NCBI GenBank assembly: GCA_961205875.1 | Contig: OY540812.1 | Coordinates: 14,012,001 to 14,076,000, forward strand | Length of the DNA stretch: 64,000 bases | From: Sialis fuliginosa | Lineage: Eukaryota > Arthropoda > Insecta > Megaloptera > Sialidae | Direction: 5' to 3' | In this document: positions 8,191-51,220 of the stretch, piece by piece | How the letters are laid out: every line of letters starts with the position of its first letter | Numbering within the stretch: the stretch's first letter is position 1 | Notes under the pieces: generated by a model | The model's database searches: none | Told to the model about the DNA's origin: nothing | The model's input: the letters and a program-made list of their open reading frames with translations, nothing else | Program-made: the position numbers and the translations under genes

Positions 8191-10102
8191 ATGAAAATCG
8201 TAAGTAATGAAAATTTGTGGGAAAGACATACTAATAAATATAAGAATTATCAATGATATTGCCAATTTGTTGTTATCGTGTGCTCTCGTTAAAGGGGAAA
8301 TTTGTTTTACTTTTTTTATATGTATGTATGTAAATACATATAATATTTATTATTTTATATTCTCGTTACATTATGGTGGATGTGCAGTTCAGTAATGTGT
8401 TGTGTTTCTTCTTAACAAAGTGATTTTTATTTATATCATTCCTTTAATAGTTATAAAATATAACAAAACCATTAATATGTGTTTAAAAATTAGACAATTC
8501 GATAACTCTATCATAAATTTTAGTAAATATTATCACTAAAACAGTTAAATTACTTGGCTAATTAAATACACATAAATATTGTTAAGATTTCTTCACTGTT
8601 CTATCTACATTAAAATGTTTAATTAAAAACAATGAGATGAAAATATTTATTATATTTTCATTTTACAAATCGTCAGTAGCACGTTACACAGTATGCACTT
8701 TAGGCAACTGTCTAGGGCCCCAAGGCAAAGGGCGGGGAAGGCATCTGATGAAGTGAAGAGCGAAATAAAGGTCTCCAGGCATAGTGATCACATATTTTTT
8801 ATGAATTTTTTTTATTTTCTTATTTTACCGAAAAATATGTTTAACTGAGGGCACTAAATATTTATTCTGCCTAGAACCCTCGACTTTCATAACATGTCAG
8901 TGCATAACGTTTATAAAATTACAAATACTAACTAAACGAAGAAATAAATTATATATTTCACTTCCGTAAGCAACGGTCATTTTTTTAGTATTTTGATTGG
9001 CAAATTCCATTTCTCTCATTAGCTATTTTTATTGAGCAAAAATAATATTTTCACTAATGTAATTACAGATGTCATAGTTATCATTACTGTTATGTTGTTG
9101 CATAATATATTTTAATGTATTTTTTTAATTAAAAAATTATTAGTTGAGATTCAATTGATGAAATAATAAAAAGTTTAAATTAAACTAAATAATTATTATT
9201 TAAATGTAGGTACTTATTTATTTAATTATCTTAATTATTTATTACATTCGATGATTCGATATATAAATTTTCAATTATTTATTAATAACTTTTTTAATAA
9301 AAATTTCTAATCACTATAATAATATAGTTTGAAAATGATTACCAAGCTCAGTAATCTTTAACTGTGTCCAGGTGCGTTGCTGGGAAGGGGGGGGGGGGGG
9401 GGGGGTCCGTATACTATGTTAAAAAATAAAGCTTAATTACCTTATTTTTTGGTTATTTTAAGCTTCCAAGGAGTAAGATGTGTAAAAAAAATTTTTTGGT
9501 CATTGAATGTTTATAAAATTATAGTAATAACTATACAATTTATTAAAAAATATTTTCTTTTCTGTCGTTAAAAAATCACAGTGGTTACACCCGCCTAATG
9601 TGTAAAAACCTATTAACTTTTTTTGGCGGTGGATTGGTGACACTCTCGATTTTCCTCCTGGTTATCCCCCCCCCTTCCCCCCCTAGTGACGCCACTGACT
9701 TTGTCTGTATTATTCTTTCAAAACCCAAATGTTACAATATTTTAACAAATTCTTTAAATTTTATAGATAATTCTCATCTCACTCATCTGCGCCGCCACCT
9801 ACGCCCTGCCACTAGGCGGTGATAATCCAGCTGAAGCAACAATCTTAAGATTCGACAATGAACGAAACCCCGACGGCAGCTACCAATTTGCTTACGAAAC
9901 GTCAGACGGAAGCAAACGCGAAGAAAAAGCTGAAATAGTCAACGCTGGTTCTGAGAACGAATCACTCGTTGTCCGAGGTTCTTATTCTTACATCGGACCT
10001 GATGGAGTTACATATACAGTCACTTACATCGCCGACGAGAATGGCTTCCAGCCCATAGGAGATCACATTCCAAGCAGAGGTGCTCCAGCTCCTGGCCAGT
10101 AA
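8191..10102 (+). CDS. RR-1 cuticular protein (divergent member, gene 1)
   Basis: Secreted structural protein of the cuticle that should bind chitin through a Rebers-Riddiford RR-1 domain. Exons are 8191-8199 (Met-Lys-Ile, donor GTAAGT) and 9767-10102 (after acceptor TTTATAG), giving 114 residues. A signal peptide ends near residue 16 (ATYA, then LPLGG). The RR-1 signature is clear: SYSYIGPDGVTYTVTYIADE then NGFQP. This is the most divergent of the seven paralogues. It has RFDNERNPDGSYQFAYE where the others have NDNIG-GGY, and ends IGDHIPSRGAPAPGQ instead of QGAHLPVAP. The 1567-bp intron holds a hAT-like element (9369-9697). A poly(A) signal AATAAA lies at 10149-10154. Exon 1 was chosen because every paralogue uses the same three-codon first exon with a consensus donor. 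Confidence 0.92.
8670..8900. repeat. Probable hAT-type repeat fragment in intron 1 of gene 1
   Basis: The GC-rich stretch with GGCAACTGTCTAGGGCCCC and a following purine-rich run at about 8702-8745 resembles terminal regions of hAT elements, and the surrounding DNA is much richer in AT. I could not find a matching inverted end or target duplication, so this is only a likely fragment. Confidence 0.3.
9369..9697. mobile_element. Non-autonomous hAT-like element (MITE) in intron of gene 1
   Basis: The ends are CAGGTGCGTTGCTGGGAAGG (left) and, reversed, CAGTGGCGTCACTAGGGGGG (right), followed inward by a G run (19 G at 9387-9405) and complementary C runs (9666-9674, 9677-9683). The flanks ACTGTGTC (9361-9368) and ACTTTGTC (9698-9705) form an 8-bp target duplication with one mismatch. 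CAG...CTG ends with an 8-bp duplication are diagnostic of the hAT superfamily. The element is 329 bp and has no transposase. A second partial copy starts at 33470. Confidence 0.8.
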
Positions 10103-11382
10103 AGACTGAAATATTACTGATCTGTGTTTAGTGTCCATAATACAAATTAATAAATGACGGAAGTCAATTATTTCTAAAGATAATACAAGTACTTATCTCA
10201 TTTTGTTTATGTTTAAACATTTTCAAATTACTTTATTCTTATGTTTCTTATATTAAGAGGTATAACTTATATAAAATTCAAAATATTCAAATGTAATTTT
10301 ATTTTACAAATCTACTCATAAACAAATATTATCTTTAGAATGTATTGAAATAGTTATTACCATTTATGTTATGTCTTTCCTTATAGACTAAAATTTTTAG
10401 ATCTTAGATATAAGATAGAAAAATGTAGTTATTGATTTTTAAGTATTTTTATATACATTATACAAATCAAAACCAAAATTATTATTATCTTTTTGTTATA
10501 TTAGTATTGTTATTCTTTCTTTATTTAATTTTTTATAATAAACATTCAATCATTATAACTTGTTCAGTTCTTACATTAAACTCCTTTTGTTGAACAAATT
10601 TAAAATAGGAAATCAACAATAAGGCTAGATGCTAACATGCAATTTTAGTCGGTCGATTGTCACTTCGCGTCCACTATTAGTCTAAAATTAATGGTGGTCA
10701 TATACAAAAAAAATAATAGGTATTTTAAAAAGTCGGAAATAATCCTTCTCTTATTCAATGATTCTTCTATCTACAGTAATAAGAAAAAATGGGAATGGAG
10801 GGTCATGTTAAACTGAACATTCTGCATATTATTCGGAGAATAACTGCATCCTAAAATGAAACATTTTACCCTATTTTTAGTCCCTAACATTATTTGCACT
10901 GAGTTATCGATTATTATAAAAATATTTAATTAGGATTTCACAATCCCCGTTAATAACTTCATATCCGAGACACATATTTATTATAAACACGACTTGCATA
11001 TTGGCATAGACATAGAGAATGGACAGTGCATTCTGTATTAACACAATGGTGTAACATCTGTTCAAAAAGTGAGAGAGAGATGCAGTGTAGTTTGGAATAT
11101 ATCTATATCTTTTTCTAAGAATCTGATTGGTAGCTTACTACAGTTCAGGGTAGTATTTCTGTCAGATATATTTTTGTATATCTATCTTGTGATTTTTGTG
11201 CAATAAGTTTTTTATTAGAAAAGTAAATAATATAAACAACAAACATACTATAATGGTTCATATTTCATCGAGGAAATTTAAAAAAAACAATTGATCTGAT
11301 AGAAATTTGCAAAATTATGAATGGATATTCCGGGAAAATAACATTTTTGCTACCAAAAATATATGAAGTTCGTTCCATGTTT

Positions 11383-12312: not shown

Positions 12313-15292
12313 ATGTATGTTCGCAAAAGAGGTGAGTTATAATCTTAATGATATACATAAATAATTATCTGCCTTATATTAACTTAACAAATGACTTTTC
12401 TTTTAGACGGAAAACTGGAAGATGTGCATTTTGATAAAATAACATTTCGTATAAATAAGCAGTGTTATGGACTTGACAAAGCATACATCGATCCTGTAAG
12501 TATTTATAAAAGGTTATTTTATAACCTCATTAAAATATTTTATTCTTTAGATTGTTATAACTATGAACGTAATCAAAGGACTCTACGATGGTGTATCAAC
12601 GGTTGAATTGGATAATTTAGCTGCTGAAACCGCTGCAACTATGACTACAGTCCATGCTGATTATGCACTTCTTGCTGCTCGTCTGGCAATTTCAAATCTT
12701 CATAGAGAAACAAAGAAAGTTTTTAGTGGTTTGTTAATTTTTATTTAAAAAATAGGTGCATGCACGTATCAAATCAAATACTGCACTGAACATATTTTTG
12801 TATTATACAACATAATACTACAATAATTATCAATAATATTTCCTATTATCAAATCGTCAGCTGTGTCACTAATAATGCAAATTTATGTTAAGTGTAAAGG
12901 TCTCTATACACCTCCCAACCTGCAGGGCCGATTTGTCAGGAAGTAGAGTGGGGGTACTGCAGATTGGGTCGTGTATAGGCAAGCCGACTATTCGCGGAAT
13001 ATACGGCTCAACTTGCGTATACACAACCCAATCTGCAGTACCCCCACTCTACCTCCCAACAAATCAGCCCTTGTAGATTGGGTGGTGTATAGAGGCCTTA
13101 ACTTATATCCAATTGATTAAATTCTTTCTGTTTATTATATGTGTATAAGAAAAATATTCTATTTTTCAGACGTAATGAGCGATCTCTATCACATGGTTAA
13201 CGAAGCTACTGGAAAACATAGTCCAGTTATTTCTGAATACCATTATAATATTATCATGAAAAATGCAGACCGTTTGAACTCATCTATCATTTATGACAGA
13301 GATTTCTCTTATAATTTTTTCGGTTATAAAACTTTAGAACGGTCATATCTTGCAAGAATCAATGGTAAAATAGTCGAGAGACCTCAACACATGTTGATGA
13401 GAGTTGCTGTAGGAATTCACGGTGAAGATATTGATGCTGCGATTGAGACATACAATTTATTATCTGAGAAGTATTTCACACATGCAACACCTACTCTGTT
13501 CAATGCAGGTACAACCTGTGCTCAACTTTCATCCTGCTTTTTATTAAGAATGAGAGATGACAGCATAGAAGGAATCTATGAAACCCTTAAGCAATGTGCA
13601 CTCGTATCTAAGTCAGCCGGTGGAATCGGATTAAATGTGCACAATATAAGAGCAAAAGGAGCTGTCGTTAAGGGAACGGGTGGAAAATCAAATGGTCTTG
13701 TACCTATAATGCGTGTCTTCAATAACACTGTACGTTACGTTGACCAAGGTGGAAATAAACGACCCGGTGCAATTGCTATGTACCTAGAACCGTGGCATGC
13801 AGAGATATTTGAATTTCTAGACTTGAAAAAGAATACTGGAAAAGAAGAAATGAGAGCTAGATCTCTGTTCTATGGATTATGGATTCCTGATTTATTTATG
13901 GAAAGAGTTGAAAGCAACGGAGAGTGGTCTTTGATGTGTCCGTATGAATGTCCTGGACTAGATGACTGTTGGGGTGAAGAATTTGAAAAGCTTTACACAA
14001 AATATGAAAACGAAGGAAAATATAAAAGACGAATTCCTGCACAGAATGTTTGGTATGCAATCATAGAGGCGCAAGTTGAGACCGGTACACCGTACATGTT
14101 GTATAAAGATTCTTGTAATAAAAAAAGTAATCAGCAAAATTTGGGAACAATTAAATGTAGTAACCTTTGTACTGAAATAGTTGAATATACATCCTGTGAT
14201 GAAATTGCAGTTTGTAATTTGGCTTCTATAGCTTTAAATATGTATGTGAAACCAGATAAAACATATGATTTCCAAAAATTGAAGGAAGTAACCAAAATAG
14301 TTACAAAAAATCTTAATAAAGTAATTGACGTTACGTACTATCCATTACCTGAAGCAAAAAATTCAAACATGCGTCACAGACCAATTGGAATTGGAGTGCA
14401 AGGTTTAGCAGATGCGTTTATTATGATGAGATTACCTTACGAAAGTGATAAAGCTAGATTACTGAACAAACAAATATTTGAAACTATTTACTATGGAGCT
14501 CTTGAAGCAAGTTGTGAATTAGCAGAACGAGATGGGCCATATTCGACCTACGAAGGCAGCCCTGTAAGTAAAGGAATTTTGCAGTACGATATGTGGGAAA
14601 ATCATGAACCCACAGATTTATGGGACTGGGTCGCTTTGAAAGAAAAGATTAAAAAGCATGGTGTACGAAACTCATTACTTTTAGCTCCAATGCCTACTGC
14701 ATCAACTGCTCAAATATTAGGAAATAACGAATCGTTTGAAGCATACACGTCCAATATCTATACAAGGCGTGTATTGTCTGGAGAATTCCAAATAGTCAAT
14801 CATCATCTTGTAAAAGATTTAGTTTCGTTAGGTTTATGGAATGAAAAAATGAAAAATCAGATAATAGCAAATAATGGATCTGTACAAAATATAGATGAAA
14901 TTCCTGATGATTTAAAGAAGGTGTATAAAACTGTATGGGAAATATCTAACAAGATCGTCATCAACATGGCTGCAGACCGTGGAGCTTACATTGACCAAAG
15001 TCAGTCATTGAATCTTCATGTAGATAAACCAAACTATGGATTATTATCATCTATGCACTTTTATGCTTGGAAAGCTGGTTTAAAAACAGGAATGTATTAT
15101 TTGAGAACAAAACCTGCAGTTAATGCCATTCAATTCACAGTAGATAAAAAAACATTATCATCTAAAGTAAATAATGGAGTTGCAAATGGTGTTTCGAACA
15201 GTGCAGTACCAACTGAAGATAAAGAAAAGGAAATGGCTCAATTAGTTTGCTCATTACAAAATAGGGATGAGTGCCTTATGTGTGGTTCTTAA
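12313..15292 (+). CDS. RnrL: Ribonucleoside-diphosphate reductase large subunit
   Basis: Reduces NDPs to dNDPs in the cytosol, together with the radical-bearing small subunit, which is not in this window. Exons 12313-12331, 12407-12495, 12551-12728 and 13170-15292 join in frame to 802 residues; human RRM1 has 792. The ATP-cone occupies about residues 1-92. The catalytic set is complete: Cys218 (LSSC), Asn427/Cys429/Glu431 (NLCTE), Cys444 (AVCN), the radical-path tyrosine pair at 738-739 (GMYY), and the C-terminal redox pair Cys797/Cys800 (ECLMCGS). Asp226, Ser227, Arg256 and Gln288 of the effector site are kept. Residues 257-271 ([15 protein letters not shown]) differ from the usual TGSYIAGTNG-type loop. 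An in-frame ATG at 12292 would add seven residues; 12313 is chosen because MYVRKRDG matches the family start. The last exon alone encodes about 88% of the protein. A poly(A) signal AATAAA lies at 15609-15614. Confidence 0.97.
12899..13097. repeat. 80-bp inverted repeat (foldback/MITE) in RnrL intron 3
   Basis: The left arm 12899-12979 and right arm 13016-13097 are inverted copies with a loop of about 36 bases. The core GTGGGGGTACTGCAGATTGGG (about 12950-12969) is perfectly mirrored near 13026-13048, while the outer part (CTCTATACACC...GATTTGT) pairs with mismatches. The element is GC-rich in an AT-rich intron and would form a stable hairpin in the pre-mRNA. Its ends suggest TA- or similar-targeted MITE insertion, but no clean target duplication was seen. 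Confidence 0.75.
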
Positions 15293-19530: not shown

Positions 19531-20925
19531 ATACGACACATAACTCATAACACAAAGGAACTGTGAGATAAGATCTAGTTGACACAAAACCCATATAGAA
19601 GAAGAAAAATTTGACCGTCCGCTAAATGTACAATGTAAATTCTAGAAGACTATATAAGCATTTCCAGTAGTTTTTCATTAAAAACAGGGTGCATGTATGT
19701 CACCGATTTTACTCTCGATTTTTTTTTCTTAAAGTACATATCAAAAAAAACATGTCTCGAAATTTTTCCCTACTATCACTTTTTTCGACCGAATTACGAT
19801 TTTTTAAAGTTATTATATCGAGCGTAGTAAGACATTTCGATTGTTAGTTATTTTTCGAAATGACTCTTATTATGCATGTTATGGGGCTTATTATCTTCGT
19901 TTTTTATGGTTTCAGAGCCAAACATTGAATTTTGACCGAATGCGGTACCAAAACATTAAGGGGATTTTTTTCGAAAAATAATCGATTTTGAAACTGCCGT
20001 CAAATATTTTGGTTTCAACCAAAATACTTCCTTATAACTTTTTTCTTCATACTCCCAATTGCACCAAATTTTGGCAAGCAGTTCTTTTTTATCCTCAAAA
20101 CAATCCTCGAAAAACTTTTTCATATTGAGTTCCTAAGTGAGATGTAGTTTTTATAAAACACCTGATTACTCGTGTATTAAATATAAGAATTTTCAGTGTT
20201 TCCGAAATGTCAGGGCTTCTGATAATCGAATAAAAAATATACCACTTAATTCGTGTTTTGTAAAAAACTACTAGATATGCTAATATATTTTTATCCGATC
20301 AGACTTTACAAGTTTTAATTCCATTAAAGTTACCGAGCTTATAGTGATCTACATACATATTATTTTTTTACATTCATCAAAATATTATTAAACAAAACGA
20401 AAAAAACTTCAGACTCATTTTTCTTTATACTCACATTAAAACAATGATTTACATACTATAATAACATAATTTTATTTCAAACTTGTTCGCCTTATTTAAA
20501 AACAATTTAACCAACAGTCACGAACGTTGTTTTACTTTTTTTTTAGATTTAATGATTCACATAAATTTTATTTTTAAATTACTCCCTTCAGAGTTAATAT
20601 ATAGCGATTTTTCATCAGTTGCGGATGATGTTAATAGAGCATTTTATTTTAGTTTTATTATTATCAATACATATAATAAAATTAAATATTCAAGGCCCGT
20701 GAACACAGATTTTTTCCATTAAACTAGTTAAAAGAGTCTTTCTTGTTTATCTTCAACAGGACTGTGACAAATCCTTCGTATGTTGATTTGTTTGTTCAGG
20801 AGCACATGAACACAAGATGGAAAATGAATTAGCCTAATAGGTTGATTTCGGGATTGTTTAAAAAATATGTAGTCAAAAAAGTATTTAGATCAATAAAACA
20901 TATACTTACAAGCTTTTAGATTTTT

Positions 20926-21035
20926 GCGGTGATTTTGAAATGAATCTTGGCTTCTTGAGGCAAGTCGCGTTTTTTCGTCATTATCTCGGCCAAACCTGAA
21001 AATGTCCACTGTAATGTGTGGTGATACGTTAACTG
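20926..21035. repeat. Dispersed repeat, copy 1 (GGTGATTTTGAAATGAATCT family)
   Basis: Contains GGTGATTTTGAAATGAATCT then TGGCTTCTTGAGG, and further on TGTCCACTGTAATGTGTGGT. The same pieces occur at 51086-51220 and, partly inverted, at 61583-61760. Non-coding. Confidence 0.55.
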
Positions 21036-21139
21036 AGATACCGATCAAAATGACAGTTTTATGTAAGTTTTCTTTACTGATGTAGTGTACTCGTAGTTTA
21101 TTTAAATTATTTTATATGAAATGTTTTTACCAGGGGTCC

Positions 21140-21560
21140 GGAGTTAATTCCGGAATTAATTCCGGAACTGAATCCCTGCTATTCGTTCCGGAACTTTTAA
21201 AATCTATCCGTTCCCTACGTTAAAAACTCCGGAACGAATAGATTCTATTAACTCCGAAGAGAATTCGTGCCGGAACTTTTAAAATCTATTCGTGCCCTGG
21301 CTTATAAACTCCGGAACGAATAGATTCTATTTGCTCCAGAGGGCATTAATTCCGGAATTTATAAAATCTATTAGTTCCCTGGCTTATAAACTCCAGAACT
21401 AATACAATCTATTAATTCCGCACGGCATTCGTGTCGGAACTTATAAAATCTATTCGTTCTCTGATTTAAAATCGTCGGAACTTTTAAAATCTATTTGACT
21501 CCAGGAGACATTATCAGTGGAGCAGATAGATTTTATAAGTTCTTTAGTGTATCCGGCACG
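21140..21560. repeat. About 60-bp tandem units in left arm of foldback
   Basis: Imperfect tandem units built from AAAATCTATTCGTTCC, GGCTTATAAACTCCGGAACG and AATAGATTCTAT modules, many internally palindromic (TTCCGGAA). Mirrored at about 27310-27735 in the right arm. Confidence 0.75.
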
Positions 21561-21789
21561 ATTAAAGTCTATACGTTCCCAAATTTTATATTAGATTGAT
21601 TGTACATGAAGCCAAATAGTTTAATGTGTATGTAATTACTATAAAATGCAAATCGAGTATTATTAATTTATTTAAACTATTGTTAAGGCTTTCGCGGTTT
21701 GTAATTTATAGATAATTAACATACATTTTATGAATTTTTGTAACAAATATTTTATTGGAATAATTTGATATGTGATAATTGTCATCAAA

Positions 21790-23230
21790 AACAATTTACA
21801 ACAAATACGTATTAAGGTAGATTTAGAGCCCTTTTTCTTAGAATACCGTATTCTCAGAAATAAAATCAAATATATTATATGCTATGTAATCATTTATAAA
21901 ATTAATTAAGTCAGACACGTATTAAGGAAAATTTGGACCCCATTTTCTAAATATTTAAATATTTTGGAAAAAAATGAGATAGTCAGTTGTATTAAACATT
22001 AACTAAATAAATTTAAAGTCAGTCACGTATTAAGGTAAATTTAATGTCCTTTTTACTAAAAAAATTGTAATGTCGGAAATAAAATTAAAAAATTAAGATG
22101 ATACTATTAATTACGTTCTGTGAAACAAAACCTAATACAGAATTAAGTCAGTCGTGTATTAAGTAAGATTAGAGCCCTTGTTCTTAAAATAACATAATCT
22201 CATAAACAAAATCAAATATTCTATATATTATGTAACCATTTATATAAATTATTAAGTCAGGTACGTATTGAGGAAATTTGGGCCCGTTTTGTAAATATTT
22301 TAAATTTTAGGAAAAATAAAAAAATAACATGAGATAGTAAGTTGTATGAAATATTAAATATGTAAAATTAAAGTCAGTGACGTATTGAGGTAAATTTAAA
22401 GCCCTTTCTACTAAAATTTAATAATATCGAAATAAAATGATAAAATACTATGGTAACTTATTTTATGTGAAACAAAAACTACAACCGAATTAAGTCAGAT
22501 GTGTATTAAGTAAGATTTAGAGCCCTTCTTCTTAAAATAATGTTATCTCAGAAACAAAATCAAATATGCTATATAATATGTAATCATTTATATAAATTAT
22601 TAAGTCTGACACGTACGAAGGAAAATTTGGGCCCCGTTTTGCGAAAAATTTAACTTTTCAGACAAATAAATAAATAACATGAGATAGTAAGTTGTATGAA
22701 ACATTGACTGTATAAAATTAAAGTCAGTCACGTATTAAGGTAAATTTAATGCCCTTTTTAATAAAATATTGTAATATCCGAAATAAAATGAAAAAAATAC
22801 TATGGTATTATTGATTATGTTCTATAAAACAAAAATTATAACAAAATTTAGTCAGATGTGTATTAAGTAAGATTTAATACCACTTTTCTTAATGTAACGT
22901 AATCTCAGAAACAAATGCATACGTACTATATAATATGTAATCATTTTATAAATTATTAAGTCAGACACGTATTAAGGAGAATTTGGGCCCCGTAAATTAA
23001 AAAAATTAAGATGGTATTATTAATTATGTTCTACGAAACAAAACTTTATACGGAATTGAGTCAGTCGTGTATTAAGTAAGATTTTGAGCCCTTCTTAAAA
23101 TAACGTAATTTCAAACAAAAACAAATATAATATACATTATGTAATCATTTATATGAATTATTAAGTCAGACACGTATTATGGAAAATTTAGGCCCCGTTT
23201 TTTAAATATTTTAAATTTTAGATAAATAAA
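21790..23230. repeat. Three-monomer higher-order tandem array, left arm
   Basis: Monomers of about 105-125 bp centre on a CGTATTAAGG-like box. Three types alternate: A (GTGTATTAAGTAAGATTTAG then AGCCC), B (ACACGTATTAAGGAAAATTT then GGGCCCC) and C (CACGTATTAAGGTAAATTTA then ATGCCC). Boxes near 21807, 21915, 22021, 22146, 22256, 22373, 22493, 22605, 22723, 22850, 22961, 23050 and 23166 read ABC ABC ABC AB AB: 13 monomers with a 340-357-bp trimer period, one C missing near the inner end. Confidence 0.8.
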
Positions 23231-24965
23231 AAAATAACATGAGATAGTAAATTGAAATATTTTTTAATATTTTTTTCTGCTTTCTTACGTATTAAAATGA
23301 GCACGAATAAATGATAATTTTTGCCCGTTTTGTAATAGTGAGGACGACGTATCAAAAATACCATTATATTATGAAAAAGAAAATAATTAATTCAAAATTT
23401 TAGTAATAAAATTCAAATATAATAAAAATCAAATGAGTTCTGAATACTATTAAATAAGTATAATAAATGCAGTTTACAGTTCTGTTATGAATTTAGGAAA
23501 TTACTCAAAGAACATTTATTGATAAATAAACATCATTTTGATGTTAATTTTATTTAATAGTAATTTTCATAAATACTGGATATGTAACGCTTCGCAGGTG
23601 ATAAATTTTTTATTTTGTTCTTTTTTAGCATTAAAAATATTATTTACAATATTTTGGGTTTCAATTAACTACAGCAAATATCGTATAACTAAATACTTAT
23701 AATCTATTATACCTATGTTATATATGATGTTTTTATATAGGTACTGCGTATTTCGGTGTTTATATTTTTACTGCCGATTGTCTGTTTTCAACTTTGTAGA
23801 TGTTTTAAGTAATAAGGAGATTTCTTTCTTTCTAGACTTTGGATTTACTGTTGGTTAAAATGAGAGCGATATATATCAAAACATTGCTGTTCGTATACAT
23901 AACATATGTATGGTGTATAGCGTGTATAGATACAGAAACAAAGATAGTTATATTATATAACAATACAAAAGATGTGTACATCTCTTTTACACTTGTACAA
24001 TATTATGAATAATGACTAATATGTTCAACTTGCAGCCTGGTAAAATTTCAACAAATGATTAAAACGTACATCTAATTAATATACATATATTCAAGATAAT
24101 TTGCTTTGATTGAAAAGGACAAAGTGAGATTAATAGGGTTTCTTCGGAACCCTAAAAAAGATTTGAAAATCTAATATCTACAATTAATAAAAATTTACAA
24201 AAAACATTAATAAATGAGCTATCAACTCAAAATGAACATACATATAAAACTCTAAAAATATAAATATAATTTTTATTATTGTCACAAACACATCTTGCAT
24301 TTTTTAATTTAGTTTATAGATGTTTAGTTTTAGAGGATTTAACCGTATGGTCTACTGTACTTGGATTATTGAATAGAATGAAAACGACATATATTTTTCT
24401 CCTTGTTACATACATAATCTACAAAGACCTTGTATTCATAAACAAGGATAATTTTATTATTTAACTATACAAGTTATGAATACATCTCTATTTCACAAAA
24501 TACTAAATATTATCCACTAAATTTTATAGTGTAAAAAATGCATTCGTAGCTTGCAAATTACAGAGCTATTGCAATAATTGTTTAAACATATTAAGTTATA
24601 CATTTTTTAAAGGTTTAATCAATTGTTGAAATTTTACCAGGCTGCAAGTTGAACATATTTGTCATTCTTCATAATATTGTACAAGTGTAAAAGAGATGTA
24701 CACATCTTTTATATTGTTATATAATATAACTCTCTTTGTTTCTGTACCTATACACTATACACCATACATATGTTATACGAACAGCAATGTTTGGATATAT
24801 ATCGCTCTCATTTTAACCAACAGTAAATCCAAAGTCTAGAAAGAAAGAAATCTTTTTATTACTTAAAACATCTACAAAGTTGAAAACAGACAATCGACAG
24901 TAAAAATATAAACACCGAAATACGCAGTACCTATATAAAAACATTAAATATAACATAGGTAAAAT

Positions 24966-25346
24966 CAGGCCCGGATTTAGAAATTTGCCCCCCCTCGAAA
25001 CTAACAGTTTAAGTCATAGATGTCAAAATATAAAACTCAGGATTTTTTTTTTTTTGGTTGCGTCAGTTTCAAATGTTATAAATTTTTATAAAGTTACATT
25101 AGGAAACATAAAAACTGAAGACTTTTTTTCATGCTTGAGTTACATGTATAGAGAAATTATTGCTTATTGATTGAAATTTTTACGTCTCGATTTTCGGATG
25201 GCAAACTCATCGATAATGGAATCAAAATCAAATTCAATTCCCACGAATATAACAAGTTTTCAAAGTTTCCACCAAAATTTGCCGCCCTTCAATTATTGCC
25301 GCCCTAGGCAGCTGCCTACTCTGCCTGCACGGTAAATCCGGGCCTG
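24966..25346. mobile_element. Nested hAT-like MITE, right arm only
   Basis: A 381-bp insertion starts CAGGCCCGGATTTA and ends with its exact reverse complement TAAATCCGGGCCTG. The flanks GGTAAAAT (24958-24965) and GGTATAAT (25347-25354) are an 8-bp duplication with one change. The left arm of the surrounding foldback at the mirror position (about 23697-23712) lacks it and preserves the empty site, which proves insertion into a pre-existing palindrome. Non-coding. Confidence 0.9.
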
Positions 25347-25859
25347 GGTATAATAGATTATAGGTATTTAGGTATACGATATTTGCTGTAGTTAATTGAA
25401 ACCCAAAATATTGTAAATAATATTTTTAATGGTAAAAAAGAACAAAATAAAAAATTTATCACCTGCGAAGCGTGACATATCCAGTATTTATGAAAAGAAA
25501 ATTACTTTTAAATAAAATTAACATCAAAATTATGTTTAATTATCTTAAGAAATGTATTTTGAGTAAATTCCTAAATTCATAACAGAACTGTAAACTGGAT
25601 TTATTATACTGTTATTTAATAGTATCCAGAACTCATTAATTAACTCCAAATTTATATAAATATTTGATTTATGTTATATTTGATTTTTATTATATTTGAA
25701 TTTTATTACTAAAATTTTAAAATAATTATTTTCTTTTTCATAATTGTATTTTTGATACGTCGTCATCACTATTACAAATCGGGCAAAAAATTTTATTTAT
25801 ACATGCTCGCTTTAATACGTAAGAAAGCAGAAAAAAATATATAAAAAATATTTCAATTT

Positions 25860-27075
25860 ACTATCTCATGTTATTTTTTTAATTTGTAAATATTTAGAAA
25901 ACGGGGCCCAAATTTTCCTTAATACGTGTCTGACTTAATAATTCATATAAATGATTACATATTATATAGTACGTATGCATTTGTTTCTGAGATTATGTTA
26001 CATTAAGAAAAGTGGTATTAAATCTTAATTAATACACATCTGACTAAATTTCGTTATAATTTTTGTTTTACAGAACATAATTAATAATACCATAGTTATT
26101 TCGGATATTACAATATTTTATAAAAAAGGGCATTAAATTTACCTTAATACGTGACTGACTTTAATTTTATACAGTCAATGTTTCATACAACTTTCTATCT
26201 CATGTTATTTATTTATTTGTCTGAAAAGTTAAATTTTTCACAAAACGGGGCCCAAATTTTCCTTCGTACGTGTCAGACTTAATAATTTATATAAATGATT
26301 ACATATTATATAGCATATTTGATTTTGTTTCTGAGATAACATTATTTTAAGAAGAAGGGCTCTAAATCTTACTTAATACACATCTGACTTAATTCGGTTG
26401 TAGTTTTTGTTTCACATAAAATAAGTTACCATAGTATTTTATCATTTTATTTCGATATTATTAAATTTTAGTAGAAAGGGCTTTAAATTTACCTCAATAC
26501 GTCACTGACTTTAATTTTACATATTTAATATTTCATACAACTTACTATCTCATGTTATTTTTTTATTTTTCCTAAAATTTAAAATATTTACAAAACGGGC
26601 CCAAATTTCCTCAATACGTACCTGACTTAATAATTTATATAAATGGTTACATAATATATAGAATATTTGATTTTGTTTATGAGATTATGTTATTTTAAGA
26701 ACAAGGGCTCTAATCTTACTTAATACACGACTGACTTAATTCTGTATTAGGTTTTGTTTCACAGAACGTAATTAATAGTATCATCTTAATTTTTTAATTT
26801 TATTTCCGACATTACAATTTTTTTAGTAAAAAGGACATTAAATTTACCTTAATACGTGACTGACTTTAAATTTATTTAGTTAATGTTTAATACAACTGAC
26901 TATCTCATTTTTTTCCAAAATATTTAAATATTTAGAAAATGGGGTCCAAATTTTCCTTAATACGTGTCTGACTTAATTAATTTTATAAATGATTACATAG
27001 CATATAATATATTTGATTTTATTTCTGAGAATACGGTATTCTAAGAAAAAGGGCTCTAAATCTACCTTAATACGT
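25860..27075. repeat. Three-monomer higher-order tandem array, right arm
   Basis: Mirror image of the left array, with 11 monomers. Read from the outer end inward they are ABC ABC ABC AB. It is two monomers (about 200 bp) shorter than the left arm. The monomer boxes appear as CCTTAATACGTG and ACTTAATACAC on the + strand. Confidence 0.8.
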
Positions 27076-28107
27076 ATTTGTTGTAAATTGTTTTTGATGA
27101 CAATTATCACATTTCAAATTATTCCAATAAAATATTTGTTACAAAAATTCATAAAATGTATGTTAATTATCTATAAATTACAAACCGCGAAAGCCTTAAC
27201 AATAGTTTAAATAAATTAATAATACTCGATTTGCATTTTATAGTAATTACATACACATTAAACTATTTGGCTTCATGTACAATCAATCTAATATAAAATT
27301 TGGGAACGTATAGACTTTAATCGTGCCGGATACACTAAAGAACTTATAAAATCTATCTGCTCCACTGATAATGTCTCCTGGAGTCAAATAGATTTTAAAA
27401 GTTCCGACGATTTTAAATCAGAGAACGAATAGATTTTATAAGTTCCGACACGAATGCCGTGCGGAATTAATAGATTGTATTAGTTCTGGAGTTTATAAGC
27501 CAGGGAACTAATAGATTTTATAAATTCCGGAATTAATGCCCTCTGGAGCAAATAGAATCTATTCGTTCCGGAGTTTATAAGCCAGGGCACGAATAGATTT
27601 TAAAAGTTCCGGCACGAATTCTCTTCGGAGTTAATAGAATCTATTCGTTCCGGAGTTTTTAACGTAGGGAACGGATAGATTTTAAAAGTTCCGGAACTTT
27701 ATCGGAGCGGGAGTCAAATAGGCATTAATTCCGGACCCCTGGTTTTTACTGTGTAGGTACATGACACTTCAGTAAATACAATGCGTGGACTTTGTTCAAG
27801 AATACAAATATGGGTTATGTTAAGTACCTATGTATGTACTTCTATTTTTATGTAATGTAAAATGTTTTCTAGAAAATAATTTCGTCTGAATTCATTAGTA
27901 CCTATTTTGTTTGTATTGTTCTAAAAGTATATGTAATATTCTTACTATTCTTGCCATTCAAGACAATCCCTCACTATTCATGTTTCATTTTACTCATTCA
28001 CGGTTACATTTTTCGAGTACCATGAAATTATTCATCTTGGTTTTTGTATTTTCCGTATTTGCGTATTTCTCTATTGTATTACATGGCCTAATAATGAAAA
28101 AACTATT

Positions 28108-28325
28108 TTATTCTTCGACATAATCTCCATCCAGAGTAATGCACTTGTTCCAACGGTCCTCTAACATTTTGATACTGGTCTTATAGTGGTTCGCGTCAAG
28201 TCTCAAAACAAGTGTTTGTTTTCAACTCGACCTCTTCATTAGAGTAAAATCTTTTCTCAGAAAGCCACATTTTCAATTTCGGAAAAAGGTAGTAGTCGCT
28301 AAGGACCAAATATGTGAGGTCAAAG
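28108..28325 (-). pseudogene. Mariner-family transposase, C-terminal relic
   Basis: Reading the - strand, the last frame is MLEDRWNKCITLDGDYVEE, with the stop at 28108-28110, the typical C-terminus of mariner (DD34D) transposases. Upstream in a shifted frame lies SDYYLFPKLKMWLSEKRF followed by YSNEEVELK, which matches the segment after the last catalytic aspartate region. A frameshift with an in-frame stop (near 28190-28205) separates the two parts, and nothing recognisable remains of the N-terminal two thirds. This is a dead fragment of a Tc1/mariner element. The flanking inverted end was not identified. Confidence 0.85.
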
Positions 28326-28821
28326 ACTATTCATCCCATGCAGTAGGTATAGTTAGTTATATGAATTTTTAGTAATACAGTACTGGGAAATTAATTTAAT
28401 CTAGTTCTGTCAACAAATAAAATAAAATTCTGTAAAAAAGAAAAAACTGTATTTAATTTGAAATGCACCTAACATTTGTAGTCCAAATGTTACTCTGTGA
28501 AATTTATTAATGATGTTACACGTTCAATAAAAATTTACATATATCTAAATGTTTATTATCAATTATCAAATCTGATTCAACAATTTTTTCTATGTCAGCA
28601 ACTATGTATCTCGAGCTAACCTTTACACAGTTTTGAAAATATAAATAAACTGATGCTCTGCAATTGACATCTACTCCGAAACCATTTCATCTGAGGTGGG
28701 AGACTTGCATAATTTTAAATATAAACAATTCGTCTCCTGCTCCGAGCAAATGATTTATAAAATAAGGTGGGGTTTAAATGTCAAAAGCAGAGCGAAGCAA
28801 CCTTCCTGATGGGCTGAGATA

Positions 28822-28898: not shown

Positions 28899-29703
28899 AT
28901 GAAGATGGTAAGTTATACAACGGAATTTACAATAACTGGATTGTGCTGTAAATAAAGACTGTAATCATATGCACTCTTTATTGCGGTTCTTGCTTGTATT
29001 TAATTATTATAATTTGCTAATTTCAAATATAAATAATTTTATTTACAACTTCTTGCGTCATACGTGTGAAATACTAATAAAAGCTTGTAGTTTGTCTGGT
29101 TTTAACATTTGTGTAATATTCAATCGATTTATTTGCGTCTGTACATTTTTTTATTAAATCTTGTACTTAATTTTTTGAGCAACGTTAGTTTATCCAAAAT
29201 ACCGTTTATATTTTTTTTTTATAATTATAAATAGTTATTTTGAATATATGTAGAGGAAACATCGATAAATTCAACATTATTTGATATTTTTAATTTTGAG
29301 GTCAAAATTTGTATGTCTTCCTTTTTCTTTTTGAATATAAATCATCTTTCTTTTTGATTAAATTTTTTTATTGATTGTTGTATTCTCTTTCCAGATCATT
29401 GTTTTCGCCGCCGTCTTGGCGCTCGCTTTAGCCCGTCCCCAACAAGACAAAGACGCCGTAGTCGTAAGATATGACAGTGACAACATTGGACTTGGTGGAT
29501 ACAACTACGCCGTAGAGACCTCCAACGGAATCCAACAACAAGAATCTGCTGAACTCAAGAACGCCGGTACCGAAAACGAAGCCATCTCCGTCCGTGGATC
29601 GTTCTCCTACATCGGTGCTGACGGAGTCACCTACACTGTTACTTACATTGCCGACGAAAATGGTTTCCAACCCCAGGGAGCTCATTTGCCAGTAGCACCA
29701 TAG
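28899..29703 (+). CDS. RR-1 cuticular protein (gene 2)
   Basis: Secreted chitin-binding cuticle protein. Exon 1 28899-28907 (Met-Lys-Met, good context CCACCATGA, donor GTAAGT) and exon 2 29395-29703 (acceptor TTTCCAG) give 105 residues. Signal peptide residues 1-16 end ALALA before RPQ. The RR-1 domain spans roughly residues 38-97: GSFSYIGADGVTYTVTYIAD then ENGFQP. The C-terminus is QGAHLPVAP. The GYNYAVETSNGIQQQES stretch groups it with genes 5 and 6, yet its 3' coding end is nearly identical at the base level to gene 3. The coding part is far richer in GC than its flanks. A poly(A) signal lies at 29819-29824. The intron is 487 bp. Confidence 0.95.
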
Positions 29704-30751: not shown

Positions 30752-31099
30752 ATCGACTTCAAAAAAGGAGGAGGTTCTCAATTCGACAGTATATATTTTT
30801 TATGTATGCTCGGGCCTAACTCCGACAAATAAGTACCGATTTGGACGTTTTTTTTTTGTTTGAAAGAGTATACTTCCGAGGTGGTCCCATATAAATTTCA
30901 TCAGAATCACACCATGGACTTCAGAAAAAGAGGGGATTTTCAATTCGGCTGTATATATTTTTTAAGTATGCTCGGGCATAACTCCGACAAATATACACCT
31001 ATTTGGATGATTTTTTTGAGAGTATACTCCCGAGGTGGTACCATAAAAGTAAAAAACTTTATAAGAAAAAAAAATAAGAAAACCGACTTCAAAAACTGT
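30752..31099. repeat. Dimeric interspersed repeat (GACTTCAAAAA family)
   Basis: Two similar units in tandem. The first (30752-30915) starts CGACTTCAAAAAAGGAGGAG; the second (30917-31060) starts ACTTCAGAAAAAGAGGGG. Both carry a TCAATTCG(A/G)C(A/T)GTATATATTTTTT segment, GCTCGGGC(C/A)TAACTCCGACA, and a CCGAGGTGGT box. The element closes with AACCGACTTCAAAAACTG (31082-31099). This composition matches a repeat common in lepidopteran and other arthropod genomes; the class is not certain. Confidence 0.7.
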
Positions 31100-32569: not shown

Positions 32570-32864
32570 CCGGTATTATAAAGGAGCTAACAAATTGCTA
32601 GCTAACATGCACTTTCAAATGGGGTATTAATTTTGTGATAGTATCTATGGATTAGCTATGGAATTTAGAGCAGTGATACTTCAACTTATTGTAACACAGT
32701 TGACAACTCAGACCGTACAAAATAATTTTCATAATATCGCCACAGTTTTAATACCGTGGGTGTTTATTTACCACGCGTGCGTGAAAATTGTCAAACACTT
32801 CATGAAACTCAGATAGGTTAGAAACCTCATTTGAAAGTACTTGCTAGCTCGTTTATAATATCCG
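32570..32864. mobile_element. MITE with CCGGTATTATAAA / TTTATAATATCCG ends
   Basis: The terminal inverted repeats of about 55 bp include GAGCTA(A/G)CAA and ACTTTCAAATG. Parts of the interior (TCTATGGATT, TGGAATTTAGA, ACCGTA) recur in a decayed copy at 40645-40890, and a relative with similar ends is at 44100-44360. No coding frame. The target duplication is unclear. Confidence 0.65.
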
Positions 32865-37727: not shown

Positions 37728-38461
37728 ATGAAACTGGTAAGTTAAATTTAGTGAAAAAAAGTGCTTTGTGTTTGATAAAATTTAATATAAAAACGTTTAG
37801 TGAAAATTTTCTTAAATGTGGCTTATGTTAAAATATTTTATAAATTCAATAATTTAGTTTTAAAGTATATTTTAATTCCTTATTGGTATCTAAATTTGTG
37901 TGTTAAATTAATGTTTGAATCCAATACTTGGACGAACTACGGACGAATTTAAACTAATATTCATTTCGTAAAATACAATTTCGTAAATTTAATTTACACT
38001 AAAATTTTAAATTAACATTTATTCTGAACCTTACGAGCACATAACATAAATTACAATATGTTTTATCAGTAACCCACAATCTTTTAAAGTTTTAGTTTAT
38101 CATAGGTACTAAAATTTCACTTTGAAAACATATAATTATGATTTTTCAGATAATTGTTCTCGCCGCCTTAATGGCAGTCGCATTGGCCCGGCCACAGAAA
38201 AGCGACGAAGTGACCGTCCTCCGTTACGACAACGACAACATCGGTGTCGGAGGTTATAAGTTCGGCTATGAACTCTCTGACGGCAGTGCTCACGAAGAAA
38301 CCGCGGAACTGAAGAATGCCGGAAGTGAAGACGAAGCTATCTCTGTTCGTGGATCCTTCAAGTACGTTGGACCAGACGGAGTCACATACACAGTAACCTA
38401 CATTGCCGACGAAAATGGTTTCCAACCCCAGGGAGCTCATTTGCCAGTAGCACCTCAATAA
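37728..38461 (+). CDS. RR-1 cuticular protein (gene 3)
   Basis: Secreted chitin-binding cuticle protein of 106 residues. Exon 1 37728-37736 (Met-Lys-Leu, donor GTAAGT) and exon 2 38150-38461 (acceptor TTTTTCAG). The signal peptide ends AVALA before RPQ. The mature start is short (QKSDEVTVLRYDNDNIGVGG), followed by GYKFGYELSDGSAHEET, like genes 4 and 7 (ELSDGS type). RR-1 core: GSFKYVGPDGVTYTVTYIAD then ENGFQP; tail QGAHLPVAPQ, one residue longer than the paralogues. The last 50 or so coding bases are the same as in gene 2. A poly(A) signal lies at 38538-38543. The intron is 413 bp. It is the last + strand gene before the cluster turns to the - strand. Confidence 0.95.
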
Positions 38462-40644: not shown

Positions 40645-40890
40645 TCAATTTGCTAGCTTTCGAGCACTTTAATATAGAATATCAATTCTGTGATTTGCTC
40701 TATGGATTTGTTTTGGAATTTAGAAAATTGGTACTTCAATTTATTAAATTATAGTTGGTGACTCTGACCGTATAAGATATTTCTCATAGTTATTTTCTAC
40801 TTACTACGCATACGCTAAACTGTTAAAAAACGTTATGAAAATGTCTATTTTGATGCTTTGTTTTAATGTGCTTGCAAGCAAGCTAAAATA
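40645..40890. repeat. Decayed copy of the 32570-32864 MITE
   Basis: Shares TTGCTAGCTT, GCACTTT, TCTATGGATT, TGGAATTTAGA, TACTTCAA and GACCGTA blocks in the same order as 32570-32864, with many substitutions. Ends are poorly defined. Confidence 0.5.
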
Positions 40891-43470: not shown

Positions 43471-45713
43471 TCAAGGAGCAACTGGTAAATGAGCACCCTG
43501 GGGTTGGAAACCGTTCTCATCGGCAATGTAGGTAACTGTGTAGGTAACGCCGTCAGCGCCGATGTAGGAGAATGATCCACGGACGGAGATGGCTTCATCG
43601 TCAGTTCCAACGTTCTTGAGTTCAGCAGATTCTTCGTGTTTGCTGCCGTCTGAGAGTTCATAGCCATATTTGTATCCTCCGACTCCGATGTTGTCGTTGT
43701 CGTATCTCAAGATGGTAACTTCATTTGGGTTCTTGGCTACGGCTTTGGCCTGTCCTTTTTGTGGTCTTGCAAGAGCGATGGCCAATACGGCGACGAAGAC
43801 AATGATCTAATAAGATAAATTAATATGCGTATTTATTAAAAATATTCAATAAAAGTAAACTTATATTTTTTTCAAAAACGAAATAATTTATTGCAACAAT
43901 GTACATGTTTCATGTTTTTTTTTTGCTTTTGAAAACAGATTTAATCGTTTAGCAGGGCCGGCAGTAGAATGTATATTTTTCTATCAAATTTGCTAAAAAG
44001 CTGATTTTTCCTGAATATCATTATCCTAATATAATTTTAATTAAACTATTCAATATGATTTCCAATTTATAAAAAAATATATTTTTGTCAGGCATATGTT
44101 CGGTATTATAGACTAGCTAGCAAAATTTGCTAGCTTGCAAACACTTTCAAATAGAGTATCAAACTTATACGACAGTTCTCTTGGAGTTTTTGACATTGAT
44201 TAAATTTAAATTAAAAACCAAGGTATTTAAAGTATATTTATATGAAGGTTATTTAGTAATCTTGAGTAATAATGCTAAAACATATAAGTTTGATACCCTA
44301 TTTTAAAGTGCTATAAAAAGCTAATAAATTTTGCTTACTATTCTGATTATAATTATCAGAATCTGATGATTATACATAGTTTTGCTACTAGGAAACTTTT
44401 GATATTTTTCATAATTATAATTAAAGATAATAAAAGGTACCTTGCAACGAAACTATAATTATTGAATAAGGTAGAAGCTATGGTTTGATATAAATAATTT
44501 AGATAATTATTCGGAAAAAAATATTTTCATATCTGGTTTCAAAATCAAAGTAAAAAATATATATAAAAAAAAACAATCTTTATCAGTTCTGTTTTAAAAA
44601 AAATACCAATTTTTCGAGGCTATGGCAACTATATAATATGGATATTTAACAAATAATTTACCGTTCCTCTTTAATATAAAATATAAAATTACTTAAATCT
44701 ACATTTCAATTTTGTATCGTATTATCAACAGAACCAAGCATTTTTTGATTAAATGGAATTTTAATTGTCTGCACTATGTTTTTCAACGCATATTGTACAT
44801 TTTTCTATGAGAGCCTAGCATTTAACTAAATATAATTTTAAATATATAAGTATCATTTAAATCACGTTCGTAATACACCAAGCTTACTTTAATTGAGCAT
44901 TTAGCGCTAAAAGAGCATTGACAAATTGACAATACCGGGCATAAGTAATCAAATATTTATAGAAACAAATCTTCAACAATTTCAAAGTATTTTTTTATAA
45001 ACATTATCAAGGTAAATTTATGAATCGGGTATCTACATCTTATTTATAAACATTCAATCGCAAAATAATAATATATATGTACCTACATATTTTTAAATAA
45101 TATGTATCATTTAATATAATATTATACTGCAATATTAATAAAGAAATATATAAAGAAAGCCATGCATATTCAAACTATATACAATGTCGTAATCTTAATC
45201 GAATAGAACTGTTGTAATAAATTGCTACTTCACAGATAATACTTCATTACACATACTCTAGGTAAATTTCATTATTTTGTATATTGTTGACGAAATATCT
45301 TTGTAAAGGATTTTTATTTAACCTTCTTCAATTTATTTCAGTTAGATTATAACACCACTCAAATCAAATTATCGTTAATATAATATGCGCTCAGTATTAT
45401 CAAGTTTTAATTAAATGCTCCTTTAACTAACTGTAATATTATTAACACTATGTTTTTACAACAGATATTATGTACATTTTTTATTGAGAGCCTAAATATT
45501 GATTTAAATCACATTTGTAATATATAAAATTTAGGTTAAAGAAGCATTTAGAGCTAAAGGAGCTTTAAATTGGTTAATAATACCGGGCATATATCCAATT
45601 ATTATGTTTAAATGATTTTTATTACTTTATATTTGTTTTTAAGAAGGATGAGTTTAGCAAAACATATAAATTAATATTAAAAAATAATAAATATTAATAC
45701 ATACCAGTTTCAT
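43471..45713 (-). CDS. RR-1 cuticular protein (gene 4)
   Basis: Secreted chitin-binding cuticle protein of 114 residues. Exon 1 is 45713-45705 (Met-Lys-Leu, donor GTATGT), exon 2 is 43806-43471 (acceptor CTTATTAG). The signal peptide ends AIALA before RPQ. Compared with the paralogues it has about nine extra residues at the mature N-terminus (KGQAKAVAKNPNE), rich in Lys and Ala. Domain: GYKYGYELSDGSKHEES, then GSFSYIGADGVTYTVTYIAD, ENGFQP and tail QGAHLPVAP. The TGA stop and 3' UTR resemble those of gene 6. The poly(A) signal is the reverse of TTTATT at 43290-43295. The intron (1898 bp, the longest in the family) is largely made of non-coding transposon copies (44100-44360, 44697-44945, 45405-45598). 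Confidence 0.95.
44100..44360. mobile_element. MITE in intron of gene 4, related to 32570-32864
   Basis: The left arm GGTATTATAGACTAGCTAGC then AAAATTTGCTAGC, ACTTTCAAATAGAGTATCAA is mirrored at about 44290-44355 (TTTGATACCCTATTTTAAAG, AATAAATTTTGCTTA). Arms about 60 bp. Confidence 0.6.
44697..44945. repeat. Intronic GCCCGGTATT-type element, copy 1
   Basis: Reads TACATTTCAATTTTGTATCG, ACGCATATTGTACATTTTT, GAGAGCCTAGCATTTAACT, AGCATTTAGCGCTAAAAGAG and ends AATACCGGGCATAAG. The same blocks in the same order form copy 2 (45405-45598) and, reversed, copy 3 (59050-59360) in the intron of gene 7. Non-coding, probably a MITE of about 320 bp. Confidence 0.65.
45405..45598. repeat. Intronic GCCCGGTATT-type element, copy 2
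   Basis: Carries TTAAATGCTCCTTTAACTAA, TGTACATTTTTTATTGAGAG, TTTAAATCACATTTGTAATA, GCATTTAGAGCTAAAGGAGC and ends AATAATACCGGGCATAT. It lies about 105 bases inside the donor site of gene 4 exon 1. Confidence 0.6.
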
Positions 45714-49065: not shown

Positions 49066-49753
49066 TCAAGGAGCAACTGGTAAATGAGCACCCTGGGGTT
49101 GGAAACCGTTCTCGTCGGCAATGTAGGTAACTGTGTAGACAACACCGTCTGGGCCAGTGTATGAGTAAGATCCCTTGACGGAGATGGCTTCGTCCTCGGT
49201 ACCGGCGTTCTTAAGTTCAGCTGATTCTTGTTGTTGGATTCCGTTGGAGGTCTCTACGGCCCAGTTGTATCCACCAATGCCGATGTTGTCGTTGTCATAT
49301 CGTAAGACTTGTGCGTCTGCGTCTGGGTTCTGTGGGCGGGCCAAAGCGAGCGCTACTACGGCAACGAATACGATGAACTGAAAGATAATTTCATTTTTAT
49401 TACTTAACATATTCATAATTTTTTGATTTTCTCTAAATAAATTTTCGTGAAAAAATGACAAAATATTTATTCCAAAATTAAGCACTAAAAAATAATCGTT
49501 AATATTTGCAATAATCGAACAAATAAATCAAAATGTAAATTTAAATAATAACCGATAATCTGTGTTACATAACAACAAAGGAAAAAATTCTCGGAATTTA
49601 ATACATCGCTATACAAAGTTCATCATAATAATTGCGACCCGGTGACCTTCTAATAAGAAGATGACTACGTGATACCGTAAGACCAATACCAATAAGTCAC
49701 TGAATATTACCACTTTCACTTTCACAAATGTTTTTTTCACTCACCGTTTTCAT
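49066..49753 (-). CDS. RR-1 cuticular protein (gene 5)
   Basis: Secreted chitin-binding cuticle protein of 106 residues. Exon 1 is 49753-49745 (Met-Lys-Thr, donor GTGAGT), exon 2 is 49377-49066 (acceptor TTTCAG). The open frame continues upstream of exon 2 into the intron, which could mislead gene finders into calling an N-terminus of 36 extra residues. That version has no signal peptide, while the spliced one gives MKT plus FIVFVAVVALALA before RPQ. Domain: GYNWAVETSNGIQQQES, GSYSYTGPDGVVYTVTYIAD, ENGFQP, tail QGAHLPVAP. The last 60 coding bases almost equal those of gene 4. Poly(A) signals, reversed, are at 48955-48960 and 48964-48969. The intron is 367 bp. Confidence 0.94.
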
Positions 49754-50580: not shown

Positions 50581-51085
50581 ATTCATTATAGAAATTTGTT
50601 CAAATTAATTCTTTGTACCTAGTTATTTTTGTAAAATATGAAATGAAAAACTCATCATTATTTTTTTAAATACATAGTTTTAAAATACAATAATTATAAT
50701 CATATTTGATGGTATGATAAATATATATTCTACTTTTTTTACTGTTCCATCTTATCCATAATTGATACAAAATTGAACTGCCATAAAACAATAAAATAAA
50801 TAAAATCTAATTATAGATTTTGTCACCTAATTTGCCATCCAATTATCGACCAAAATAGTAATCTGGAATTAAGTCATATATTAAAGATTACAGCATATGT
50901 AATAAGCCGTAATTACCTGATAAACAAGAAATTTCTCTTGTTAAATTAACAACTTTTAGTAAGCAAACAAAAAATACTTGTAACTAAATAATGATCACAT
51001 TTACTTTTGATATTAATAATGATATATTTTTGTATAGTAATATAATAACTTAAAAGTGTACCAAGAGCCATCTTTGAGGGTTATA

Positions 51086-51220
51086 CGGTGATCTTGAAAT
51101 GAATCCCGGCTTCTGGGTGCTGAATATATTTACTAAAATTGAAGATGAAATGTTAGCCAAAATAACGACCGAAACGATGGGGTTTATTACCAGAAACCAA
51201 GGTCCACTGTGTACCAAGAC
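51086..51220. repeat. Dispersed repeat, copy 2 (GGTGATTTTGAAATGAATCT family)
   Basis: CGGTGATCTTGAAATGAATC then CCGGCTTCTGGGTGC, and later GAAATGTTAGCC, AACGACCGAAACG and GTCCACTGTG. Shared with 20926-21035 and 61583-61760. Confidence 0.55.

What the first reader, a model, noticed from the sequence alone, without database searches (positions are those of the whole stretch)
21123..27749. 6.6-kb palindromic element with hAT-type ends and 8-bp target duplication
Long foldbacks with tandem-repeat arms are best known from the FB/Galileo group (P superfamily, other duplication lengths). Here the tips CAGGGGTCCGGA and the perfect duplication GTTTTTAC fit the hAT superfamily, and the arms are about 3 kb each around a 0.55-kb loop, with no transposase. 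A hAT-derived foldback of this size and inner structure is unusual, and I know of no described family with this layout. Such palindromes are prone to breakage and hairpin-mediated rearrangement.
Basis: partly seen in the sequence, partly recalled or inferred. Interest (0 to 1): 0.75.

Follow-up and report, generated by a model that had tools for sequence, protein, structure and literature searches.

The report
Insect foldback transposon with hAT-like ends
This is a 6.6-kb non-coding "jumping gene" in an insect genome, built almost entirely of two mirror-image arms, whose ends look like those of the hAT family; the mirror-image transposons I found described are assigned to other families.

Summary
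A 6,611-bp palindromic element (21131-27741) has an 18-bp tip CAGGGGTCCGGAnTTAAT at both ends and a perfect 8-bp duplication, GTTTTTAC. Arms of 2.9-3.1 kb flank a 550-bp loop. No curated Pfam domain reached its cut-off in the 10 of 39 ORFs scanned. A simple inverted-duplication artefact does not fit: the sub-tip sequences differ, outer arms differ at 4 of 1,601 aligned positions, inner arms at 46 of 1,040, and one arm alone holds a 381-bp nested element whose empty site is in the other arm.

Best reading: a non-autonomous foldback DNA transposon, probably (about 0.65) mobilised by a hAT transposase. Each end has eight CCGGAAC-type sites at exact 41-bp pitch, inferred to be transposase-binding sites. 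The outer 1.6 kb was probably homogenised recently by arm-to-arm gene conversion.

hAT membership is likely, not shown. No second copy or transposase could be sought: the genome search did not complete (11 attempts). New variant of a known kind.

The parts
21123..21130 (.). left target-site duplication GTTTTTAC
27742..27749 (.). right target-site duplication GTTTTTAC
21131..27741 (.). whole foldback element, 6,611 bp, 26% GC
21131..21148 (+). left tip CAGGGGTCCGGAGTTAAT
27724..27741 (-). right tip CAGGGGTCCGGAATTAAT
21149..21184 (+). left sub-tip segment that differs from its partner; contains 12-bp TCCGGAATTAAT repeats
27698..27723 (-). right sub-tip segment, unlike the left one
21188..21515 (+). 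left subterminal array: eight 41-bp units each starting with a CCGGAAC-type site, two alternating unit types (82-bp repeat)
   Evidence: the 383-bp module 21131-21513 folds with z = -7.5
27367..27694 (-). right subterminal array, mirror copy of the left one
21185..22786 (+). outer left arm, nearly identical to its partner (4 differences in 1,601 aligned positions)
26096..27697 (-). outer right arm
21797..23326 (+). inner array of the left arm: 14 matches (12 or fewer mismatches of 34) to the motif TAAGTCAGACACGTATTAAGGAAAATTTGGGCCC
25781..27085 (-). inner array of the right arm: 12 matches to the same motif
22787..24063 (+). inner left arm, diverged (4.4% over 1,040 aligned positions, plus gaps)
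24614..26095 (-). inner right arm
24064..24613 (.). unpaired loop, 550 bp
24966..25346 (.). nested 381-bp hAT-like MITE (14-bp tips CAGGCCCGGATTTA, 8-bp duplication GGTAAAAT / GGTATAAT) in the right arm only
   Evidence: empty site GGTATAAT in the left arm within 23701-23740

Best explanation
A non-autonomous foldback DNA transposon that inserted as a cut-and-paste unit about 1.1 kb upstream of a cuticle-protein gene. Shown by sequence: matched tips, an exact 8-bp duplication, arms of about 3 kb, arrays in both arms. Inferred: a hAT-superfamily transposase (Tip100-like tips) supplied in trans recognised the 18-bp tips, and the eight phased CCGGAAC-type sites next to each tip are extra transposase-binding sites that make an otherwise too long, empty element recognisable. 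Inferred history: the tandem arrays formed first, an arm was then copied in inverted orientation (or the arms were kept alike), inner arms drifted to 4.4% and one took a nested MITE, and recently a conversion between the arms homogenised the outer 1.6 kb but not the 26-36 bp beside the 18-bp tips.
For: Tips and duplication. Tip CAGGGGTCCGGA against Tip100 CAGGGGCGGAG (PMC12511174); duplication fits nTnnnnAn reported for Hermes (PMC2803484). Subterminal sites: TTCCGGAA with at most one mismatch occurs 7 times in the left 383 bp and 6 in the right 373 bp, 0 times in the 5.85 kb between and 18 in the 57.4 kb outside; CCGGAAC-type sites fall at exact 41-bp pitch eight times in each arm. Precedents: hAT Hermes binds multiple subterminal repeats through BED domains (PMC10368747 passages) and Galileo's long arms hold several transposase-binding sites (PMC3688188 passages). 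Conversion: 4 of 1,601 against 46 of 1,040 differences, Fisher p about 5e-15; the same array unit is 98-100% alike between arms but different units are 84-87% alike.
Against: No transposase, second copy or autonomous partner was found, because none could be sought in the source genome. One locus only. CAGnG tips and an AT-rich 8-bp duplication are weak diagnostics: GTTTTTAC also shares GT...TAC with Galileo's GTANTAC consensus (PMC4168063). Long TIRs and short subterminal tandem repeats are typical of Mutator foldbacks such as Muta1 and Tm1. The nested element's duplication GGTATAAT does not fit nTnnnnAn at position 2. The binding role of the 41-bp sites and the conversion event are inferences.
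Confidence: 0.65

Rival explanations
1. A Mutator-like (MULE/Phantom/Rehavkus type) foldback that happens to have an 8-bp duplication and a tip starting CAG.
For: PMC4079207 says most foldbacks seem to belong to Mutator; Muta1 has 8- or 9-bp duplications and nine 12-bp subterminal repeats; MULE TIRs are commonly hundreds of bp and duplications 8-11 bp (PMC6446971 passages). The left end here also has 12-bp repeats.
Against: Tip fits the Tip100 hAT tip; the MULE tips I saw printed (Tm1 CGGTTAA / CCTACCC) do not resemble it; most MULE groups listed's truncated table have 9-11 bp duplications. I did not see the Muta1 or Phantom tip letters.
Confidence: 0.15
2. A P-superfamily foldback like Galileo.
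For: P-superfamily elements include the best studied long-armed foldback; duplication GTTTTTAC resembles GTANTAC with a base more, and three Galileo copies of D. willistoni have 8-bp duplications.
Against: CAGGGG tips match a hAT element; P tips starting CA without this motif are recalled, not checked in a call. No THAP-type transposase in the loop (no Pfam domain in the ORFs scanned).
Confidence: 0.12
3. Another eight-base-duplicating DNA transposon superfamily, or a chimera of ends and body from different elements.
For: Classification rests on 18 bp and one duplication; the arms carry no known sequence.
Against: Tip match to Tip100; matched ends and duplication argue for one insertion event.
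Confidence: 0.05
4. Assembly or library artefact (inverted duplication by foldback reads) or a host inverted duplication rather than a transposon.
For: Long perfect palindromes can be produced by sequencing chimeras; reads could not be inspected.
Against: Palindrome stops exactly at matched tips flanked by an 8-bp direct repeat; sub-tip segments differ; inner arms differ by 46 of 1,040 and by gaps up to 204 bp; one arm alone has the nested element with its own duplication.
Confidence: 0.03

Closest known systems
Galileo (P superfamily, Drosophila)
   Same: Long, internally tandem-repeated arms; copies consisting of two arms without transposase; several transposase-binding sites in the arms; arm-length change and exchange between copies.
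   Different: P transposase, mostly 7-bp GTANTAC-type duplications; D. mojavensis TIRs 18-1,250 bp, against about 3 kb here.
Tetris (D. virilis, assigned to Mutator by its authors)
   Same: Foldback with flanking, tandem-repeat and inner arm domains, no ORF, 8-9-bp duplications in complete copies.
   Different: Arms up to 1,735 bp with about 220-bp repeats; tips not compared here.
Muta1 and Tm1 (Mutator foldbacks)
   Same: Arrays of short subterminal repeats beside a terminal motif; Muta1 makes 8- or 9-bp duplications.
   Different: Muta1 TIRs are 145 bp; Tm1 has asymmetric terminal motifs unlike CAGGGG and mostly 9-bp duplications.
Tip100 and relatives (hAT)
   Same: CAGGGG...CGGA tip and 8-bp duplication.
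   Different: Tip100 has 11-bp TIRs and a transposase gene, not kilobase arms.

Membership tests
Foldback-type elements (structural class) | Very long inverted arms making up most of the element | tested here: met
   Arms 2,933 and 3,128 bp (2,747 without the nested insert) of 6,611 bp
Foldback-type elements (structural class) | Internal tandem repeats in the arms | tested here: met
   41/82-bp and about 350-bp arrays in both arms
Foldback-type elements (structural class) | Flanking target-site duplication | tested here: met
   GTTTTTAC on both sides
hAT superfamily | 8-bp target-site duplication | tested here: met
   one locus
hAT superfamily | Target consensus nTnnnnAn (Hermes) | tested here: met
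   G-T-TTTT-A-C fits; weak in AT-rich DNA; Buster/Tip groups may differ
hAT superfamily | CAGnG-type tips | tested here: met
   CAGGGGTCCGGA at both ends; Tip100 CAGGGGCGGAG; the general CAGnG rule is recalled
hAT superfamily | hAT transposase in the element or in an autonomous partner with the same tips | not tested
   None in the 10 of 39 ORFs scanned; partner not searchable, genome search unanswered (11 attempts)
Mutator superfamily | 8-11-bp duplication (mostly 9 in animal foldbacks seen) | tested here: inconclusive
   8 bp lies at the edge
P superfamily (Galileo) | 7-bp GTANTAC-type duplication | tested here: inconclusive
   8 bp GTTTTTAC; three Galileo copies have 8 bp

The most novel reading that the evidence does not exclude
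The hAT superfamily has independently evolved kilobase foldback arms, with a helically phased array of alternating head-to-head transposase-binding sites at each end, and such arms are kept alike by arm-to-arm conversion after insertion; foldback would then be a convergent state reachable by Mutator, P and hAT.
Probability: 0.4. Interest if true: 0.55.

Novelty: new variant of a known kind. Interest (0 to 1): 0.42.

Why it matters
If hAT, it adds a third superfamily to those with kilobase tandem-repeat foldbacks and supports the view that multiplied binding sites rescue long, transposase-less elements. It also offers a single-locus record of palindrome evolution: old arrays, an arm exchange, a nested insertion in one arm with the empty site in the other, and a recent homogenised tract. 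It lies upstream of a cuticle-protein gene, where a fragile palindrome or an arm transcript could matter, though nothing here tests that.

Tried and rejected
Looking for other copies: tip and repeat patterns in viral contigs (none; one contig) and prokaryote genomes (none; four bacterial single matches). Comparing the element with these five fetched loci gave only one 19-bp match, so they are taken as chance. Distant blastn against phages: none. These collections hold no insect genomes, so the negatives say little.

Empty site from a paralogous flank in the window: the joined flanks matched nothing but themselves over useful length.

Coding remnants: 39 stop-to-stop ORFs of 40 aa or more overlap the element; 10 scanned in Pfam gave three matches at E 0.067-0.14, all below the curated cut-offs; 29 were not scanned.

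Host identity: the ribonucleotide reductase exon is closest to Chrysoperla (78-79%), but the tree gives it no supported place, so only 'an insect' is claimed.

A mariner-like fragment beside the element did not reach Pfam.

Printed descriptions of a hAT foldback: ten searches of the open-licence library. None of the passages I read assigns a foldback to hAT; 'foldback element' with 'hat' as whole words held 0 papers. Listings were seen in part, subscription papers are not held, and two key papers (Phantom, Galileo in P) are not held. I recall foldbacks in sea urchin (TU) and Chironomus (TFB1) but saw them only cited; TU is, from memory, flanked by 8-bp repeats and could be a precedent.

Full report
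What is there. The finding's coordinates are exact. GTTTTTAC stands at 21123-21130 and 27742-27749, and between them lies a 6,611-bp element starting and ending with CAGGGGTCCGGA in inverted orientation. The longer tip CAGGGGTCCGGAnTTAAT is found only at these two ends, and no shuffle of 100 has two matches. The 12-mer alone is less special: with up to 2 mismatches 3 of 100 shuffles have two.

Anatomy. From each end inward: an 18-bp tip; 36 bp (left) or 26 bp (right) of sequence that differs between the ends; an array of eight 41-bp units each starting with a CCGGAAC-type site, in two alternating types so that tandem-repeat software reports 82 bp; about 290 bp without array; an array of a 34-bp motif (14 matches in the left arm, 12 in the right; none expected from three shuffles) in a three-motif higher-order unit of about 350 bp; AT-rich inner arm; and a 550-bp loop. 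Neighbouring units in the outer module are partly inverted relative to each other, and the module 21131-21513 as single-stranded DNA folds far better than its shuffles (-69.2 against a mean of -35.7 kcal/mol, 0 of 100 as good). A same-length piece of the inner array does not (z +0.9, 83 of 100 as good), so local palindromes belong to the ends only.

Age and exchange. On a global alignment of the arms, leaving out the nested insert, 4 of 1,601 positions differ in the outer tract and 46 of 1,040 in the inner arm (Fisher p about 5e-15); at the tips 4 of 37 aligned positions differ, with gaps. Array units at the same place in the two arms are 98-100% alike, units at different places 84-87%. So the arrays are older than the present likeness of the arms, and the outer tract was homogenised later than the inner one. 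Gene conversion between arms is the simplest cause; exchange with another copy is not excluded. The left arm also has a 204-bp stretch that the right lacks, about two array motifs.

Nested element. Only the right arm holds a 381-bp insertion at 24966-25346 with perfect 14-bp inverted tips and flanks GGTAAAAT / GGTATAAT; the left arm keeps a single GGTATAAT. The palindrome thus carries its own filled and empty site, which dates the nested insertion after the arms were alike.

Coding content. No ORF in the element reaches 100 aa. Ten of the 39 shorter ones were scanned; three weak Pfam matches lie below their cut-offs.

Setting. The window is insect: a ribonucleotide reductase large-subunit exon and seven proteins with the insect cuticle domain. 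The element ends about 1.1 kb before the start codon at 28899 of a cuticle gene with a TATA box at 28820. Rfam and tRNA scans of the window were empty.

Which superfamily. For hAT: tip CAGGGGTCCGGA against CAGGGGCGGAG of Tip100 (PMC12511174, passage); 8-bp duplication; fit to nTnnnnAn (PMC2803484, passages); subterminal site arrays, as in Hermes, where BED domains bind several subterminal repeats (PMC10368747, passages). Against: foldbacks described in the passages I read are Mutator or P (PMC4079207, PMC3169594, PMC5225508, PMC4168063, PMC3688188, PMC3573991), with 8-bp duplications possible in both, and GT...TAC resembles the Galileo target. My odds: hAT 0.65, Mutator 0.15, P 0.12, other 0.05, artefact 0.03. 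Arm-bearing hAT elements may exist in Repbase or in closed papers that I could not search.

Mechanism. A transposase acting in trans would bind tip and subterminal sites, excise the element and insert it with 8-bp staggered cuts. PMC3688188 proposes that multiple binding sites in long arms offset the cost of length; the exact 41-bp pitch (about four helical turns, by recall) would place sites on one face of the DNA. That step is inference.

Limits. One locus; no read data; no other copies; the genome search was unanswered in all 11 attempts.

Noticed in passing
24966-25346: 381-bp MITE with 14-bp perfect inverted tips CAGGCCCGGATTTA and an 8-bp duplication with one mismatch, in one arm only, its empty site in the other arm.
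   Followed up: yes
28111-28330, minus strand: Translated fragments look by eye like the C-terminal part of a mariner transposase (recalled motif); Pfam gave nothing for the two pieces.
   Followed up: partly
9767-10102, 29362-29703, 38126-38461, 43471-43806, 49066-49527, 53470-53808, 58394-58729: Seven insect cuticle-protein exons, a tandem cluster on both strands.
   Followed up: partly
13121-15292: Ribonucleotide reductase large-subunit exon, nearest listed relative Chrysoperla at 78-79%, no supported place in a 19-row tree.
   Followed up: partly
20914-20955, 51072-51114, 61580-61621: A 42-43-bp segment about 81-83% alike at three places in the cluster; nature unknown.
   Followed up: no
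30752-31048; 32591-32733 and 40646-40788; 44693-44928 and 59090-59311: Other repeats of the window: a tandem pair and two dispersed pairs.
   Followed up: no
10530-10922: 393-bp stretch with 11-bp inverted ends and a perfect 8-bp flank TATTTAAT; AT-rich, may be chance.
   Followed up: no
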